IMG/VR virus record: IMGVR_UViG_3300001720_000002
Span: 1 to 35,963 of that record
DNA length: 35,963 nt
Reading direction: 5' to 3' (one strand)
DNA from: a virus
Part shown: in pieces, positions 3,767 to 31,649 of the stretch
How the letters are laid out: each line of letters begins with the position of its first letter
Numbering within the stretch: the first letter of the stretch is position 1
Program-made: the position numbers and the translations under genes
Notes under the pieces: generated by a model
Told to the model about the DNA's origin: nothing
The model's input: the letters and a program-made list of their open reading frames with translations, nothing else
The model's database searches: none

Positions 3767-5204
3767 TGAAGCACTTAGATTTGCGTTAGAAAAGAGGTTA
3801 TGCGAATTATCATTCTATGAATTTTTCCAAAAGGCTTGGCATATTGTTGAACCTTCTATTGAGCTTTCTACTAATTGGCATCATAAATATCTATGTGATA
3901 TTTTACAAGAAGAAGCTGAGAGGATAATATCCAATAAACCTAAAACGAAAGATATTGTAATTAATATACCATTTCGTTCTACAAAATCACTTTTAGTTAC
4001 CGTTATGTTTCCTGTATGGGCTTGGATTAAGAATCCTAAGTTCAGATTCATAACAGCATCTTATTCTGCAGAACTTTCAATAGAACATTCAACAAGAAGT
4101 AGAGATATAATAAACTCAGAGTGGTTTAAAGAAAGATGGGGAGATTTATTCTTCATAAAAAAAGACCAAAATCTAAAATCAAGATACGAGAACAATTTTC
4201 TAGGAGTTAGGAGAGCAACATCAGTAGGAGGGACTGTTACAGGGCAAGGAGGGGACTTTCTACTTGTTGATGACCCTGTTTCCCCACAACACGCTGCATC
4301 AGAGATAGAGAGAGAGAACGCAAATGAGTGGTATAGGACAACATTCTACTCTAGGCTTAATAATCCTCTAACAGGAGTTAGGATAATTATTATGCAGAGA
4401 ATACATGATGATGATTTAAGTGGATTTTTGCTATATGGAAAGGAAAGTAGGTTAAAATACCAACATATTTGCATACCTGCAGAACTTTCAGAGGATGTTA
4501 AACCTAAAATGCTAGAGCATAACTACGATAAAGATGGATTATTTTGGACAGATAGGTTCAGTAAGGCTATTTTAGATGATTACAAACAAGCTTTAGGAAG
4601 TTATGGATATGCAGGGCAACTTATGCAAACTCCTACACCTCTAAACTCAGGAATGATAAAATCTGAATGGATAAATATAGATAATCATAAGATGGGGGAT
4701 ATTGGAGAGCAAATAACAGTTGATTTTGTTATTGACCCTGCATATACTGCAAATGAGAAGAACGACCCATCTGCATTACTAGCGTACATATTTAAAAACA
4801 ATAAATGGCAGATAATTGATTGTATCAATGTTTATAAAGAATTTCCTGAATTAATTAAGTTTATTCAGCAATGGGTAGCTAAAAATGGATATACAAGTAG
4901 AAGTAGGATTTATGTTGAGCCTAAAGCTTCAGGTAAATCTATTGTTCAGACACTAAGAAAAGAAACAGGACTGAATGTAAAGGAAGATAAGCCGCCATCT
5001 AAAGATAAGGTTGCAAGAGTGCAAGACATTTCTGCTTCTTTAGAATCAGGTAGAGTAAGTTTGCTCAAAGGGAAATGGAACGAGGAGTTTTTACAGCAAT
5101 TAGTGAGGTTTCCCTCTGCAAAGCATGATGATATGGTGGATTGTTTGGTTATGGCTGTAAATAAAAATATGTGGAGTGGGTCTAAGGTAGTTTATTTTTC
5201 TTAA
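3747..5204 (+). CDS. terL: Terminase large subunit (485 aa)
   Basis: This is the packaging motor ATPase and nuclease, working at the portal. The N-terminal ATPase has a variant Walker A at about residues 75-81 (PFRSTKS) and a Walker B FLLVDDP at 171-177, preceded by GGTVTGQGGD. The C-terminal nuclease shows the first acidic motif VIDPAYT (Asp330), the middle YVEPKASGKS and the last motif HDDMVDCL near 465, as expected for an RNase H-like terminase nuclease. The length is normal for the family. It is the last gene of the first late transcript; promoter B begins two bases after its stop codon. Confidence 0.95.
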   Translation: MTLTTTDEALRFALEKRLCELSFYEFFQKAWHIVEPSIELSTNWHHKYLCDILQEEAERIISNKPKTKDIVINIPFRSTKSLLVTVMFPVWAWIKNPKFRFITASYSAELSIEHSTRSRDIINSEWFKERWGDLFFIKKDQNLKSRYENNFLGVRRATSVGGTVTGQGGDFLLVDDPVSPQHAASEIERENANEWYRTTFYSRLNNPLTGVRIIIMQRIHDDDLSGFLLYGKESRLKYQHICIPAELSEDVKPKMLEHNYDKDGLFWTDRFSKAILDDYKQALGSYGYAGQLMQTPTPLNSGMIKSEWINIDNHKMGDIGEQITVDFVIDPAYTANEKNDPSALLAYIFKNNKWQIIDCINVYKEFPELIKFIQQWVAKNGYTSRSRIYVEPKASGKSIVQTLRKETGLNVKEDKPPSKDKVARVQDISASLESGRVSLLKGKWNEEFLQQLVRFPSAKHDDMVDCLVMAVNKNMWSGSKVVYFS

Positions 5205-22603: not shown

Positions 22604-22648
22604 AGATATGCAGGGGGTTATAAACATCCCCTGCTAATATCTTTTTTT
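22604..22648 (+). terminator. Rho-independent terminator after the capsid genes
   Basis: Stem GATATGCAGGGG (22605-22616) with CCCCTGC-TA-ATATC (22628-22641), twelve pairs with a two-base bulge, an 11-base loop, then seven T (22642-22648). The position just after the capsid and structural genes fits a stop for the promoter C transcript. The next gene starts one base later, so downstream head genes need read-through or another promoter. Confidence 0.85.
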
Positions 22649-26611: not shown

Positions 26612-26667
26612 TGTATGTTTGTAATCCTTCTTTGAGTGTTTTCATTGTTGGATAGTTAGTAGTTAAG

Positions 26668-26700
26668 AGTGAGAGGTTAATAACTTCTCACTTTTTTTTT
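26668..26700 (+). terminator. Rho-independent terminator after lysis genes
   Basis: Stem AGTGAGAGG (26668-26676) with CTTCTCACT (26684-26692), nine pairs with one wobble, loop TTAATAA, followed by eight T. It follows the last late gene by about 55 bases. Confidence 0.85.
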
Positions 26701-27951: not shown

Positions 27952-27982
27952 TTTGGTAGTTTAAAAAATTGTTGTATCTTTG
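27952..27982 (+). promoter_or_regulatory. Early promoter P1 (Bacteroidota type)
   Basis: TTTGGTAGT with TTTG at 27952-27955, 19 bases, then TATCTTTG (27975-27982) and, past it, CACAGAATTTAAGA. Shares TTTGGTAGT, GTATCTTTG and AGAATTTAA with promoter P2, so both are probably read by the same host sigma factor at the same time. The leader to ATG 28028 is about 40 bases and contains ACTAACTACTAACTAAA. Confidence 0.85.
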
Positions 27983-28027
27983 CACAGAATTTAAGACAGA
28001 CTAACTACTAACTAAACTCAAAACACA

Positions 28028-29366: not shown

Positions 29367-29675
29367 ATGAAAAATGATTATGATAAAGTAAGAACTTCAA
29401 GAAATGAACTTGAAGCAATCCTCAGGATAAGAGGTATATCAAAACAAAGATTTGGGAGAATATTAAATATTAAAGGCTCAACTATAGAGAAATATTTAGA
29501 TAACCCATATCATTTAAGGTACTACCAAATGCAAAGACTAGCCCAATTTTTAAATATTAATGTTAAAGACATTATAGATATAATAGAGATTGATTTAAAA
29601 GATGGTATGATTATAGTGCAAGGGGAGGATAACTTTTCAGTAGTAGAATCTTTATCAACCAATAGACATGAATAG
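29367..29675 (+). CDS. Cro/CI-like helix-turn-helix regulator (102 aa)
   Basis: I chose ATG 29367, one base after the previous stop (leader ATTAAA); an earlier in-frame ATG at 29337 overlaps the previous gene. Residues about 14-55 follow the XRE-type HTH pattern (ELEAILRIRGISKQRFGRIL, then IKGSTIEKYLDN, MQRLAQFLNINVKDIIDII). A short C-terminal beta region follows. It could repress P1 or P2 or act as a switch; no operator was identified, although the shared inverted-repeat element (27846) would be a first candidate. It overlaps the next gene by 8 bases. Confidence 0.7.
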   Translation: MKNDYDKVRTSRNELEAILRIRGISKQRFGRILNIKGSTIEKYLDNPYHLRYYQMQRLAQFLNINVKDIIDIIEIDLKDGMIIVQGEDNFSVVESLSTNRHE

Positions 29676-30129
29676 GTATAAACTAGAGCTTACCCAAGAG
29701 AGAGATGAGAATATTATAAATGAAATATGCTGCAGGTATGGCGTTAAGTGGTTATCTATACTTTCAAAGAGCAGGGTTGGAGTTATTGTAGATGCTAGAA
29801 GGCTGTATTGTGGAATATTAAGAAATGTTTTTGGATTAACATTTCATGAGATAGGAAAAATACTTAATAAAAATCACGCAACAATAATACATAATCTTAA
29901 AATTCACGATAACTTTGTAAGGATTTTAAAGTCATACAAAAAAAACTATGAAGAAATAGAATCAAGCCTTATGTTAGGGGATAATTATTATGAGCATGAA
30001 GTTATATCAGTTGAAAGAAAAATGGATGAACTATCTGAAAGACTAAATGATTTAATAGAAAAGAAAAACGAATACAAATTAAAAATTAAAAAACAAAAAA
30101 ATGGCAGACAAGAATTATGTAGTAAGTAG
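29668..30129 (+). CDS. DnaA domain IV-like DNA-binding protein (153 aa)
   Basis: Residues about 31-80 match the DnaA C-terminal signature: SKSRVGVIVDARRLYCGILR, GLTFHEIGKILNKNH (helix before the signature) and the NHATIIHNLKIH block, close to the RDHSTV-type box-binding motif. There is no AAA+ ATPase part, so this is a stand-alone DNA-binding domain followed by a long coiled coil (MDELSERLNDLIEKKNEYKL). In this early operon a role in origin recognition or in blocking host DnaA boxes is plausible. The 3' end overlaps the next gene by 29 bases. Confidence 0.75.
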   Translation: MNRYKLELTQERDENIINEICCRYGVKWLSILSKSRVGVIVDARRLYCGILRNVFGLTFHEIGKILNKNHATIIHNLKIHDNFVRILKSYKKNYEEIESSLMLGDNYYEHEVISVERKMDELSERLNDLIEKKNEYKLKIKKQKNGRQELCSK

Positions 30130-30352
30130 TATCAAAAAGGTAACTACGCAGTATGGAGAATTATTTAACGCAAGTTTCAAGATGGATGAATTGCAAAAGA
30201 TGTCTAAGAAAGGTTGGGTAAATATTACAATAGCAGAAAGGAGAGAGCCTTCTGAAAAAGGAGCAACTCACTATGCTTATGAGAATACTTATGAGCCACC
30301 AAAAGAAACGACATCAGACAAGGTTAAGCAAGATGATGACTTACCTTTCTAA
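30101..30352 (+). CDS. Small SSB-like protein with DDDLPF tail (83 aa)
   Basis: The last six residues DDDLPF are the acidic-hydrophobic tip of bacterial single-strand binding proteins, which docks to host replication and repair proteins. The first 60 residues (KVTTQYGELFNASFKMDELQ, then GWVNITIAERREPSEKGATHYAY) resemble a compact OB-like beta protein known in Bacteroidota phages. It is shorter than a normal SSB (about 170 residues). The leader is A-rich (AAAAAACAAAAA). It is the last gene of the P1 unit. Confidence 0.75.
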   Translation: MADKNYVVSSIKKVTTQYGELFNASFKMDELQKMSKKGWVNITIAERREPSEKGATHYAYENTYEPPKETTSDKVKQDDDLPF

Positions 30353-30378
30353 ATAATATTAAATTAACTACTAAATTA

Positions 30379-30410
30379 TTTGGTAGTGTCAAATATTATT
30401 CGTATCTTTG
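30379..30410 (+). promoter_or_regulatory. Early promoter P2 (Bacteroidota type)
   Basis: TTTGGTAGT (TTTG 30379-30382), 20 bases, then TATCTTTG (30403-30410) followed by TATAGAATTTAAA. This is very like promoter P1, including the downstream AGAATTTAA. The expected transcript start is around 30415, immediately before the RNA structure at 30421. It serves the genes from 30534 to 34790. Confidence 0.85.
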
Positions 30411-30420
30411 TATAGAATTT

Positions 30421-30494
30421 AAAATAACACCCTAGAAGGTGTCCCGTTAATACCTCCTCAGGGACGAGGAGGAACCAAGAAGGAGTGTTATTTT
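30421..30494 (+). ncRNA. Structured leader RNA element of unknown type
   Basis: A perfect 10-bp outer stem (30421-30430 with 30485-30494) encloses a G+C-rich core. Core pairings are a 7-bp hairpin CCTCCTC (30453-30459) with GAGGAGG (30466-30472), loop AGGGAC, and a 5-bp pairing GTCCC (30441-30445) with GGGAC (30461-30465) in that loop. ACACC (30427-30431) can instead pair with GGTGT (30438-30442), so the outer stem and this local hairpin compete, as in switches or attenuators. The element begins about 5 bases after the probable P2 start and is absent from the otherwise similar P1 leader. It contains no ORF. Confidence 0.65.
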
Positions 30495-30533
30495 TATTCT
30501 AACTAACTAACTATTCACTAAAACACAAAACAC

Positions 30534-31649
30534 ATGAAGAAAGAGCTACTAGCACGAAAGGAATTATTGATTGAAGTTTTATCTGTTCAAACCACAAGTG
30601 GTAATGAATTTGATATGATTGCATACATACACAGGTTTTGCAGAGAGAATGTACCCTCAGCAGAAGTTGTAATTAAAAATAGTAATATATATGTAACTAA
30701 AGGAGAAGCAGAAGCATACCCTTGCATTGTTGCACATACAGATACGGTACACGATATACATAAATTTTATAAAGTATTTGATGATGATAATTGCTTATTT
30801 GCATTTAACTCAGAATCAGGTACTCAAGTTGGTGTAGGGGGAGATGACAAGGTAGGTATATGGTTAGCATTAGAGATGTTAATGATGAAAGACAATCTAA
30901 AATGCGCTTTCTTTCACTCAGAAGAAATTGGCTGCATAGGTAGTTCTGATGCAGATATGGATTGGTTTAAAGATGTAGGGTATTGTCTGCAAGGAGATAG
31001 GAGAGGTAACAATGACTTTGTTAATAATATATCAGGTAAATTGTTTAGTAAGGCTTTTAGTAAAGCTATAGCACCTTCATTGGCTTATCACGGCTACTCA
31101 GAAGCATCAGGTTCTATTACAGATGTAGGTCAGTTATCTGACAATGGTATTGGAGTTTGTGTAGCTAACATGAGTTGTGGTTATTATGCACCTCATTCAG
31201 ATGAAGAAATAGTAGAGTTCCTTGACTCTAATAATTGTTTAAATATGATAGATATGCTTGTTGAATCTTTAGGATGCAATAGGTATGAGTATCAGAGAGA
31301 GAAAACAAATTATGATTGGGGAGATTTTAATGGTGCTAATAGAAGCTATTGGTATGATAATTATAGCGAAACAGGTTCTGAGGTAGTTCTTGATGAAGGT
31401 GGTAATGAAACCTGCTACTACTGTGGATGTAGTAATATAATTCCTAGCGATTTTAAGGGGTATAAATACTGCTCAGATTGCGAAAGTGATATAATGATTT
31501 CTGATGAAGAAAAAGAATTAAGAGATTACAACGATTCTTATGGTACAGATGATGTTGATTTTGAAGATGTATCAGATGGTTATGATGGCTCAATGGAACA
31601 TAGGTCAATAGTAAACAATTATTTAACTAGCTACGCAAAAAACAAATAG
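30534..31649 (+). CDS. M20-type metallopeptidase with C-terminal zinc ribbon (371 aa)
   Basis: The di-zinc ligand set of M20 peptidases (PepT-like) is present: HTD (His68, Asp70), GGDDKVG (Asp104), HSEEIG (Glu130/Glu131), QGDRRG (Asp155) and APHSDEE (His221). It would hydrolyse small peptides or amide bonds in the cytoplasm. Two Cys pairs near the C-terminus (CYYC at 294-297 and CSDC at 313-316) form a zinc ribbon not found in PepT, followed by a very acidic tail. No dimerisation domain insertion is obvious, so the protein seems a compact version. It is the first gene behind P2. Which substrate it has in infection is unknown. Confidence 0.8.
   Translation: MKKELLARKELLIEVLSVQTTSGNEFDMIAYIHRFCRENVPSAEVVIKNSNIYVTKGEAEAYPCIVAHTDTVHDIHKFYKVFDDDNCLFAFNSESGTQVGVGGDDKVGIWLALEMLMMKDNLKCAFFHSEEIGCIGSSDADMDWFKDVGYCLQGDRRGNNDFVNNISGKLFSKAFSKAIAPSLAYHGYSEASGSITDVGQLSDNGIGVCVANMSCGYYAPHSDEEIVEFLDSNNCLNMIDMLVESLGCNRYEYQREKTNYDWGDFNGANRSYWYDNYSETGSEVVLDEGGNETCYYCGCSNIIPSDFKGYKYCSDCESDIMISDEEKELRDYNDSYGTDDVDFEDVSDGYDGSMEHRSIVNNYLTSYAKNK

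What the first reader, a model, noticed from the sequence alone, without database searches (positions are those of the whole stretch)
30421..30494. Compact structured RNA right after early promoter P2
In an AT-rich genome these 74 bases are clearly richer in G+C and carry a perfect 10-bp outer stem (30421-30430 with 30485-30494), a 7-bp hairpin (30453-30459 with 30466-30472) and a 5-bp pairing between GTCCC (30441-30445) and that hairpin's loop (30461-30465). The last two would knot or exclude each other: no bases separate the two 3' strands, so a full H-type pseudoknot is strained. ACACC can also pair locally with GGTGT, competing with the outer stem. The transcript probably starts about 5 bases upstream. 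Possible roles are a polymerase-binding antiterminator (compare HK022 put), a switch or attenuator for the operon led by the M20 peptidase, or a stable RNA. It also holds a sequestered GGAGG and an anti-Shine-Dalgarno-like CCUCC. I recognise no known family.
Basis: partly seen in the sequence, partly recalled or inferred. Interest (0 to 1): 0.78.

Follow-up and report, generated by a model that had tools for sequence, protein, structure and literature searches.

The report
Swappable hairpin capping phage mRNA start
Right after one promoter of a family of viruses that probably infect flavobacteria-like hosts, the messenger RNA begins with a hairpin whose foot ties up the very first base; the viruses keep this shape but exchange the hairpin's contents almost completely, which suggests a protective mRNA cap carrying interchangeable RNA modules.

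Summary
It reaches slightly further: with the flavobacterial rule that TAnnTTTG sits at -12 to -5 (PMC9723704), transcription starts at G30415, and GAAU (30415-30418) pairs with AUUC (30496-30499), so the stem starts at nucleotide +1. Comparison with 26 other leaders behind the same kind of promoter changes the interpretation. Promoter and A/C-rich ribosome-binding leader are nearly constant, but the 30-170 nt between them are different cassettes. What is shared is a stem starting at +1: 23 of 27 leaders against 5.7 expected, with arms that match each other far better than arms swapped between loci (0 of 20,000 permutations). The window's inner pseudoknot is possible but found only in this phage. 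Two other modules recur elsewhere between genes, one with clear covariation. No Rfam family matches. Best reading: a 5'-terminal base-paired, mRNA-protecting hairpin used as a mount for exchangeable RNA modules. Antiterminator/protein site, attenuator or anti-defence decoy remain possible. Protection is inferred, not shown.

The parts
30379..30410 (+). Bacteroidota sigma-A type promoter P2: TTTG 30379-30382, 20-nt spacer, TATCTTTG 30403-30410
   Evidence: Sequence; near-identical in related loci; box position rule from PMC9723704
30367..30387 (.). Palindrome ACTACTAAATTATTTGGTAGT over the -33 region, probable operator
   Evidence: Only such site in the window, expected 0.01; kept in many related loci
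30415..30415 (+). Predicted transcription start (+1, G)
   Evidence: TAnnTTTG at -12 to -5 in F. psychrophilum (PMC9723704); not measured here
30415..30499 (+). 5'-terminal hairpin cassette: outer helix GAAU 30415-30418/AUUC 30496-30499 and AAAATAACAC 30421-30430/GTGTTATTTT 30485-30494, continued by CCU/AGG and GGU/ACC
   Evidence: Folds; +1 pairing shared by 23 of 27 leaders; arm-swap test
30438..30476 (+). Inner module of this phage: hairpin CCTCCTC/GAGGAGG and possible H-type pseudoknot GTCCC 30441-30445 with GGGAC 30461-30465
   Evidence: Sequence; pseudoknot scan 1 of 60 shuffles as good; not found in other phages
30500..30533 (+). Unstructured A/C-rich leader before the start codon, conserved among related phages
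30534..31649 (+). Peptidase-like protein (371 aa, phrog_4191), first gene behind the leader
   Evidence: PHROGs E 2e-54; relatives

Best explanation
The P2 transcript begins with a hairpin whose base pairs start at nucleotide +1, so the mRNA has no free 5' end. By analogy with 5'-terminal stem-loops of E. coli and B. subtilis this should hinder 5' pyrophosphate removal and 5'-end-dependent RNase attack, and so prolong the life of the peptidase operon mRNA, while the A/C-rich leader downstream stays open for ribosomes. Shown by sequence: the hairpin, its place relative to the promoter, pairing kept while sequence changes, and exchange of whole cassettes between phages with near-identical flanks. 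Inferred: the exact +1, mRNA protection, and that the inner modules (here a possible pseudoknot) are passengers with an added, module-specific role.
For: Stem starts at +1 in 23 of 27 leaders against 5.7 expected. Own arms pair far better than swapped arms: -308.5 against -207.4 kcal/mol summed, sd 13.4, 0 of 20,000 permutations. Transcribed strand folds better than its complement in 21 of 27, p 5e-4. Bare perfect hairpins without inner module exist (L033, L041, L024, L010), as expected if the stem is what matters. Leaders of the other promoter class with the same first bases are unstructured. RppH and RNase E rely on single-stranded 5' ends (PMC3997798); Bacteroidetes have RNase E/G homologues (PMC3071783).
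Against: No mRNA decay data. A plain hairpin would suffice, so conserved loops of recurring modules and large inserts need another reason. L022 and L042 lack any hairpin; L012, L013, L075 and L086 start the stem at +5 to +14. The leaders are related, so the counts are not independent; the format A start GAATTTAAG is itself constant. Whether 5'-end pairing protects mRNA in Bacteroidota is not known to me.
Confidence: 0.5

Rival explanations
1. Binding site: the inner modules are recognised by a phage or host protein (RNA polymerase for antitermination, as HK022 put, or a regulator of the operon), and the outer stem only presents them.
For: Loops of M1 and M3 hardly vary while the closing stem of M3 changes on both sides of three pairs; modules recur in different places; element lies at the start of an operon.
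Against: At one and the same place the modules have unrelated sequences, and some leaders have none; a single ligand would be expected to conserve its site. Recent spread could also explain the constant loops.
Confidence: 0.2
2. Attenuator: the hairpin is a conditional intrinsic terminator that sets the level of the peptidase operon or releases a short RNA of about 85 nt.
For: The window stem is followed by UUAUUUUUA; format B leaders have AUUUCUUUU, L012 and L013 a run of seven U.
Against: Most format A leaders have only CUUAAUUC behind the stem; no + strand terminator was called by the scan, which however allows only short loops; no alternative antiterminator fold is shared.
Confidence: 0.13
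3. Anti-defence decoy: the cassette is an early-made structured RNA that titrates a host defence factor, as pseudo-ToxI does for ToxN, and changes fast because hosts differ.
For: Whole-cassette exchange between near-identical flanks; tandem and nested modules; precedent in phage PhiTE (PMC3475682).
Against: No match to any Rfam family; no tandem repeat of ToxI size in the window leader; M3 core absent from 84,980 prokaryote genomes, although mimicry need not copy the sequence.
Confidence: 0.1
4. DNA-level palindrome (replication or recombination site, or small mobile palindromic element) that merely happens to be transcribed.
For: Nested insertion and clean exchange of hairpins; replication genes nearby: DnaA C-terminal domain and DnaC-like loader.
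Against: Fixed position at +1 of a promoter; strand asymmetry in stability and G-U pairs; no change of GC-skew direction here.
Confidence: 0.07

Closest known systems
5'-terminal stem-loop mRNA stabilisers (E. coli ompA and papA leaders, B. subtilis aprE leader; reviewed in PMC3997798)
   Same: Stem at the extreme 5' end, sequence free, before an open ribosome-binding region
   Different: Here in a Bacteroidota-type phage; contents exchanged as cassettes with recurring structured modules; no decay data
HK022 put antiterminator RNA (from my own knowledge)
   Same: Structured RNA at the start of a phage transcript
   Different: put has a conserved sequence; here sequences behind the same promoter are unrelated
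Phage pseudo-ToxI RNA (PMC3475682)
   Same: Phage-encoded small structured RNA that varies by recombination
   Different: Built of 36-nt tandem repeats resembling a host antitoxin; nothing of the kind found here
Intrinsic attenuators
   Same: Hairpin early in the leader, in some relatives followed by U-rich sequence
   Different: U-run absent in many relatives; no shared alternative fold

Membership tests
5'-terminal stem-loop mRNA stabiliser | Base pairing begins within a few nucleotides of the 5' end | tested here: met
   First paired base +1 in the window and 23 of 27 leaders, given +1 inferred from PMC9723704
5'-terminal stem-loop mRNA stabiliser | Pairing matters rather than sequence | tested here: met
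   Arm-swap test 0 of 20,000
5'-terminal stem-loop mRNA stabiliser | Longer mRNA half-life | not testable with these tools
   Needs infected cells or a reporter
HK022 put-like antiterminator | Conserved RNA sequence at the start of early transcripts | tested here: not met
   Cassettes behind the same promoter are unrelated
HK022 put-like antiterminator | Makes RNA polymerase pass terminators | not testable with these tools
   Needs in vitro transcription
Intrinsic attenuator | G+C-rich stem followed directly by a U-run, kept among relatives | tested here: inconclusive
   U-rich in the window, format B, L012 and L013; poor in most format A leaders; none called on + strand
ToxI-type antitoxin or mimic | Tandem pseudoknot repeats of about 36 nt | tested here: not met
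   No such repeat at 30300-30620
Any Rfam 15 family | Score at or above gathering threshold | tested here: not met
   Window and 18 related loci: none; relaxed scans give no credible match

The most novel reading that the evidence does not exclude
The start of this phage transcript is a cassette site in which a family of phages exchanges structured RNA modules, held on a terminal stem, because each module binds or neutralises a different host factor (for example a defence nuclease): a fast-evolving RNA counter-defence locus.
Probability: 0.12. Interest if true: 0.85.

Novelty: new variant of a known kind. Interest (0 to 1): 0.55.

Why it matters
Conserved pairing from the first nucleotide, with free exchange of everything inside, is a clean natural test of whether 5'-end pairing protects mRNA in Bacteroidota. 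The recurring modules M1 and M3 appear, as far as Rfam and the searched collections show, to be undescribed structured RNAs of phages, and the covariation in M3 makes it ready for probing.

Tried and rejected
Rfam at gathering and relaxed thresholds gave nothing usable; the best relaxed match at the element (MIR1514, minus strand, E 0.026, 23.6 bits against a gathering score of 90) is chance. A 17-base piece of the window module found only the same phage and a coding-like stretch of unrelated contigs. An H-type pseudoknot as the family's common feature was rejected: the scan found none in most modules; M4 of L014 and L019 has GGCAGG/CCUGCC crossing GUGGUU/AACCAC, read by eye, without covariation. 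M3 in host genomes: no exact core in 84,980 genomes and one weak match (E 9e-4, L096, not followed) in 299 genomes. Cellulophaga phages phi38:1 and Calle_1 carry the peptidase but not this promoter and leader. The last viral scan, with a downstream-leader pattern, was too strict and gave two known contigs. No paper on similar phage leaders was found, in a limited search. SD-like GGAGG as a ribosome site: no start codon near it, and flavobacterial initiation does not rely on Shine-Dalgarno (PMC9723704).

Full report
Observation. G+C is 45% against 33% for the window. Only 16 of 14,352 85-nt windows of the phage, both strands, fold more stably. Two things were missed. The stem is longer at its foot: GAAU 30415-30418 pairs with AUUC 30496-30499. 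And it continues inward through CCU/AGG, a symmetric AGAA/AAGA loop and GGU/ACC.

Where the transcript starts. The box TATCTTTG (30403-30410), with TTTG 20 bases upstream, is a Bacteroidota-type promoter. In Flavobacterium psychrophilum the TAnnTTTG box lies at -12 to -5 (PMC9723704), which puts +1 at G30415. That is the first paired base of the stem. This is inference from the promoter, not a measured start.

Relatives. The peptidase behind the leader found 17 viral contigs, the promoter alone 27, promoter plus first transcribed bases 31, a peptidase alignment 22; many are the same contigs. Between the conserved promoter and the conserved A/C-rich leader lies an insert that differs strongly. 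The window and L002 share 96% of the 80 bases upstream and nearly all of the downstream leader (88% in a comparison shifted by one ACTA repeat), while their cassettes are unrelated. Conversely L008 and L009 share 95% of the cassette but only 68% of the upstream 80 bases. L053 and L057 (99% and 97% flanks) differ by presence of one whole hairpin of a tandem pair. Cassettes are therefore exchanged as units. L022 and L042 have none.

What is conserved. In 23 of 27 leaders with an insert the predicted stem starts at +1 and covers at least 7 of the first 10 nucleotides; 5.7 are expected if all after nt 10 is shuffled. The arms of each leader bind each other far better than arms swapped among leaders: -308.5 against -207.4 kcal/mol in sum, sd 13.4, 0 of 20,000 permutations. 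The leaders are related, so these are not independent observations; near-duplicates on the other hand make the swap test conservative. Positions +9 to +14 carry G-C, A-U, U-A, C-G and G-U pairs. The transcribed strand folds better than its complement in 21 of 27 (p 5e-4) with more G-U pairs, as expected for selection on RNA. Leaders of the other promoter class with the same first bases are unstructured; unrelated promoters with the same motif pass the same criterion in 2 of 9 cases, both on one contig.

Inner modules. The window module was found only in this phage (contig L001/L049, with an identical peptidase, is the same phage or nearly so). A sterically possible H-type knot (GUCCC/GGGAC with CCUCC/GGAGG) is matched by 1 of 60 shuffles; with one sequence there is no covariation test. 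Other cassettes carry other motifs. M3, a closing stem around AAGWACAAAGGUCAGGUURAUUCUUGAG, is found in about ten contigs, with three pairs of its closing stem changed on both sides while the loops hardly vary. It lies in leaders, in another intergenic place in L019, and nested inside M1 in L085 and L088. M1 (GCAAACAYUGYACA, a variable hairpin, CGUAAACUKAA) lies in leaders of L005 and L053 and in terminator-like hairpins behind the small gene with an SSB-like tail in L089 and L090. The near-invariant loops argue that modules do something specific beyond capping, or that they spread recently; this work cannot separate the two.

Mechanism. A stem closing on nucleotide +1, free in sequence, placed before an open ribosome-binding leader, is the anatomy of 5'-terminal stabilisers. 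RppH and RNase E depend on single-stranded 5' ends (PMC3997798), and Bacteroidetes have RNase E/G homologues (PMC3071783). I therefore commit to mRNA protection as the shared role (0.5), with protein binding by the modules (0.2), attenuation (0.13), anti-defence decoy (0.1) and a DNA-level role (0.07) as rivals. Attenuation is weakened because many leaders lack a U-run and no + strand terminator was called, though the window's UUAUUUUUA keeps it open for this phage. A put-like antiterminator is weakened by the lack of sequence conservation.

Known or new. No Rfam family fits. As a functional class, 5'-terminal stem-loops are known; a cassette site with exchangeable, recurring structured modules at the start of a phage transcript is not something I found in the papers searched, but that search was limited. 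Hence: new variant of a known kind.

Noticed in passing
window 30367-30387: Palindrome ACTACTAAATTATTTGGTAGT overlaps the -33 region of P2 and is kept in many related phages: probable operator of a repressor or activator.
   Followed up: partly
window 27975-28027: Second promoter of the same type (TATCTTTGCACAGAATTTAAG) with the same first transcribed bases but a short unstructured leader.
   Followed up: partly
window 29668-30129 and 30101-30352: A 153-aa protein with only the DnaA C-terminal helix-turn-helix domain (Pfam E 2.5e-12), followed by an 83-aa protein ending in DDDLPF like the tail of single-strand binding proteins.
   Followed up: no
L005:2560-2660, L007:2780-2870, L086 about 4240-4340 of the reverse complement: Another recurring motif, CAGCAGUUAUACUUUG, inside terminator-like hairpins behind the small gene with the SSB-like tail.
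   Followed up: no
L085:2638-2717 and L088:733-812: Module M3 nested inside module M1 in an intergenic hairpin.
   Followed up: partly
L096: Weak M3 model match (E 9e-4) in one of 299 genomes of the order of Fluviicola.
   Followed up: no
window 22606-22648 and 26664-26698: Two ordinary intrinsic terminators with runs of seven T, a contrast to the P2 hairpin.
   Followed up: no
window 30426-30443, minus strand: Terminator-like hairpin with a T-rich tail on the opposite strand, probably a by-product of the ACACC/GGTGT pairing.
   Followed up: no
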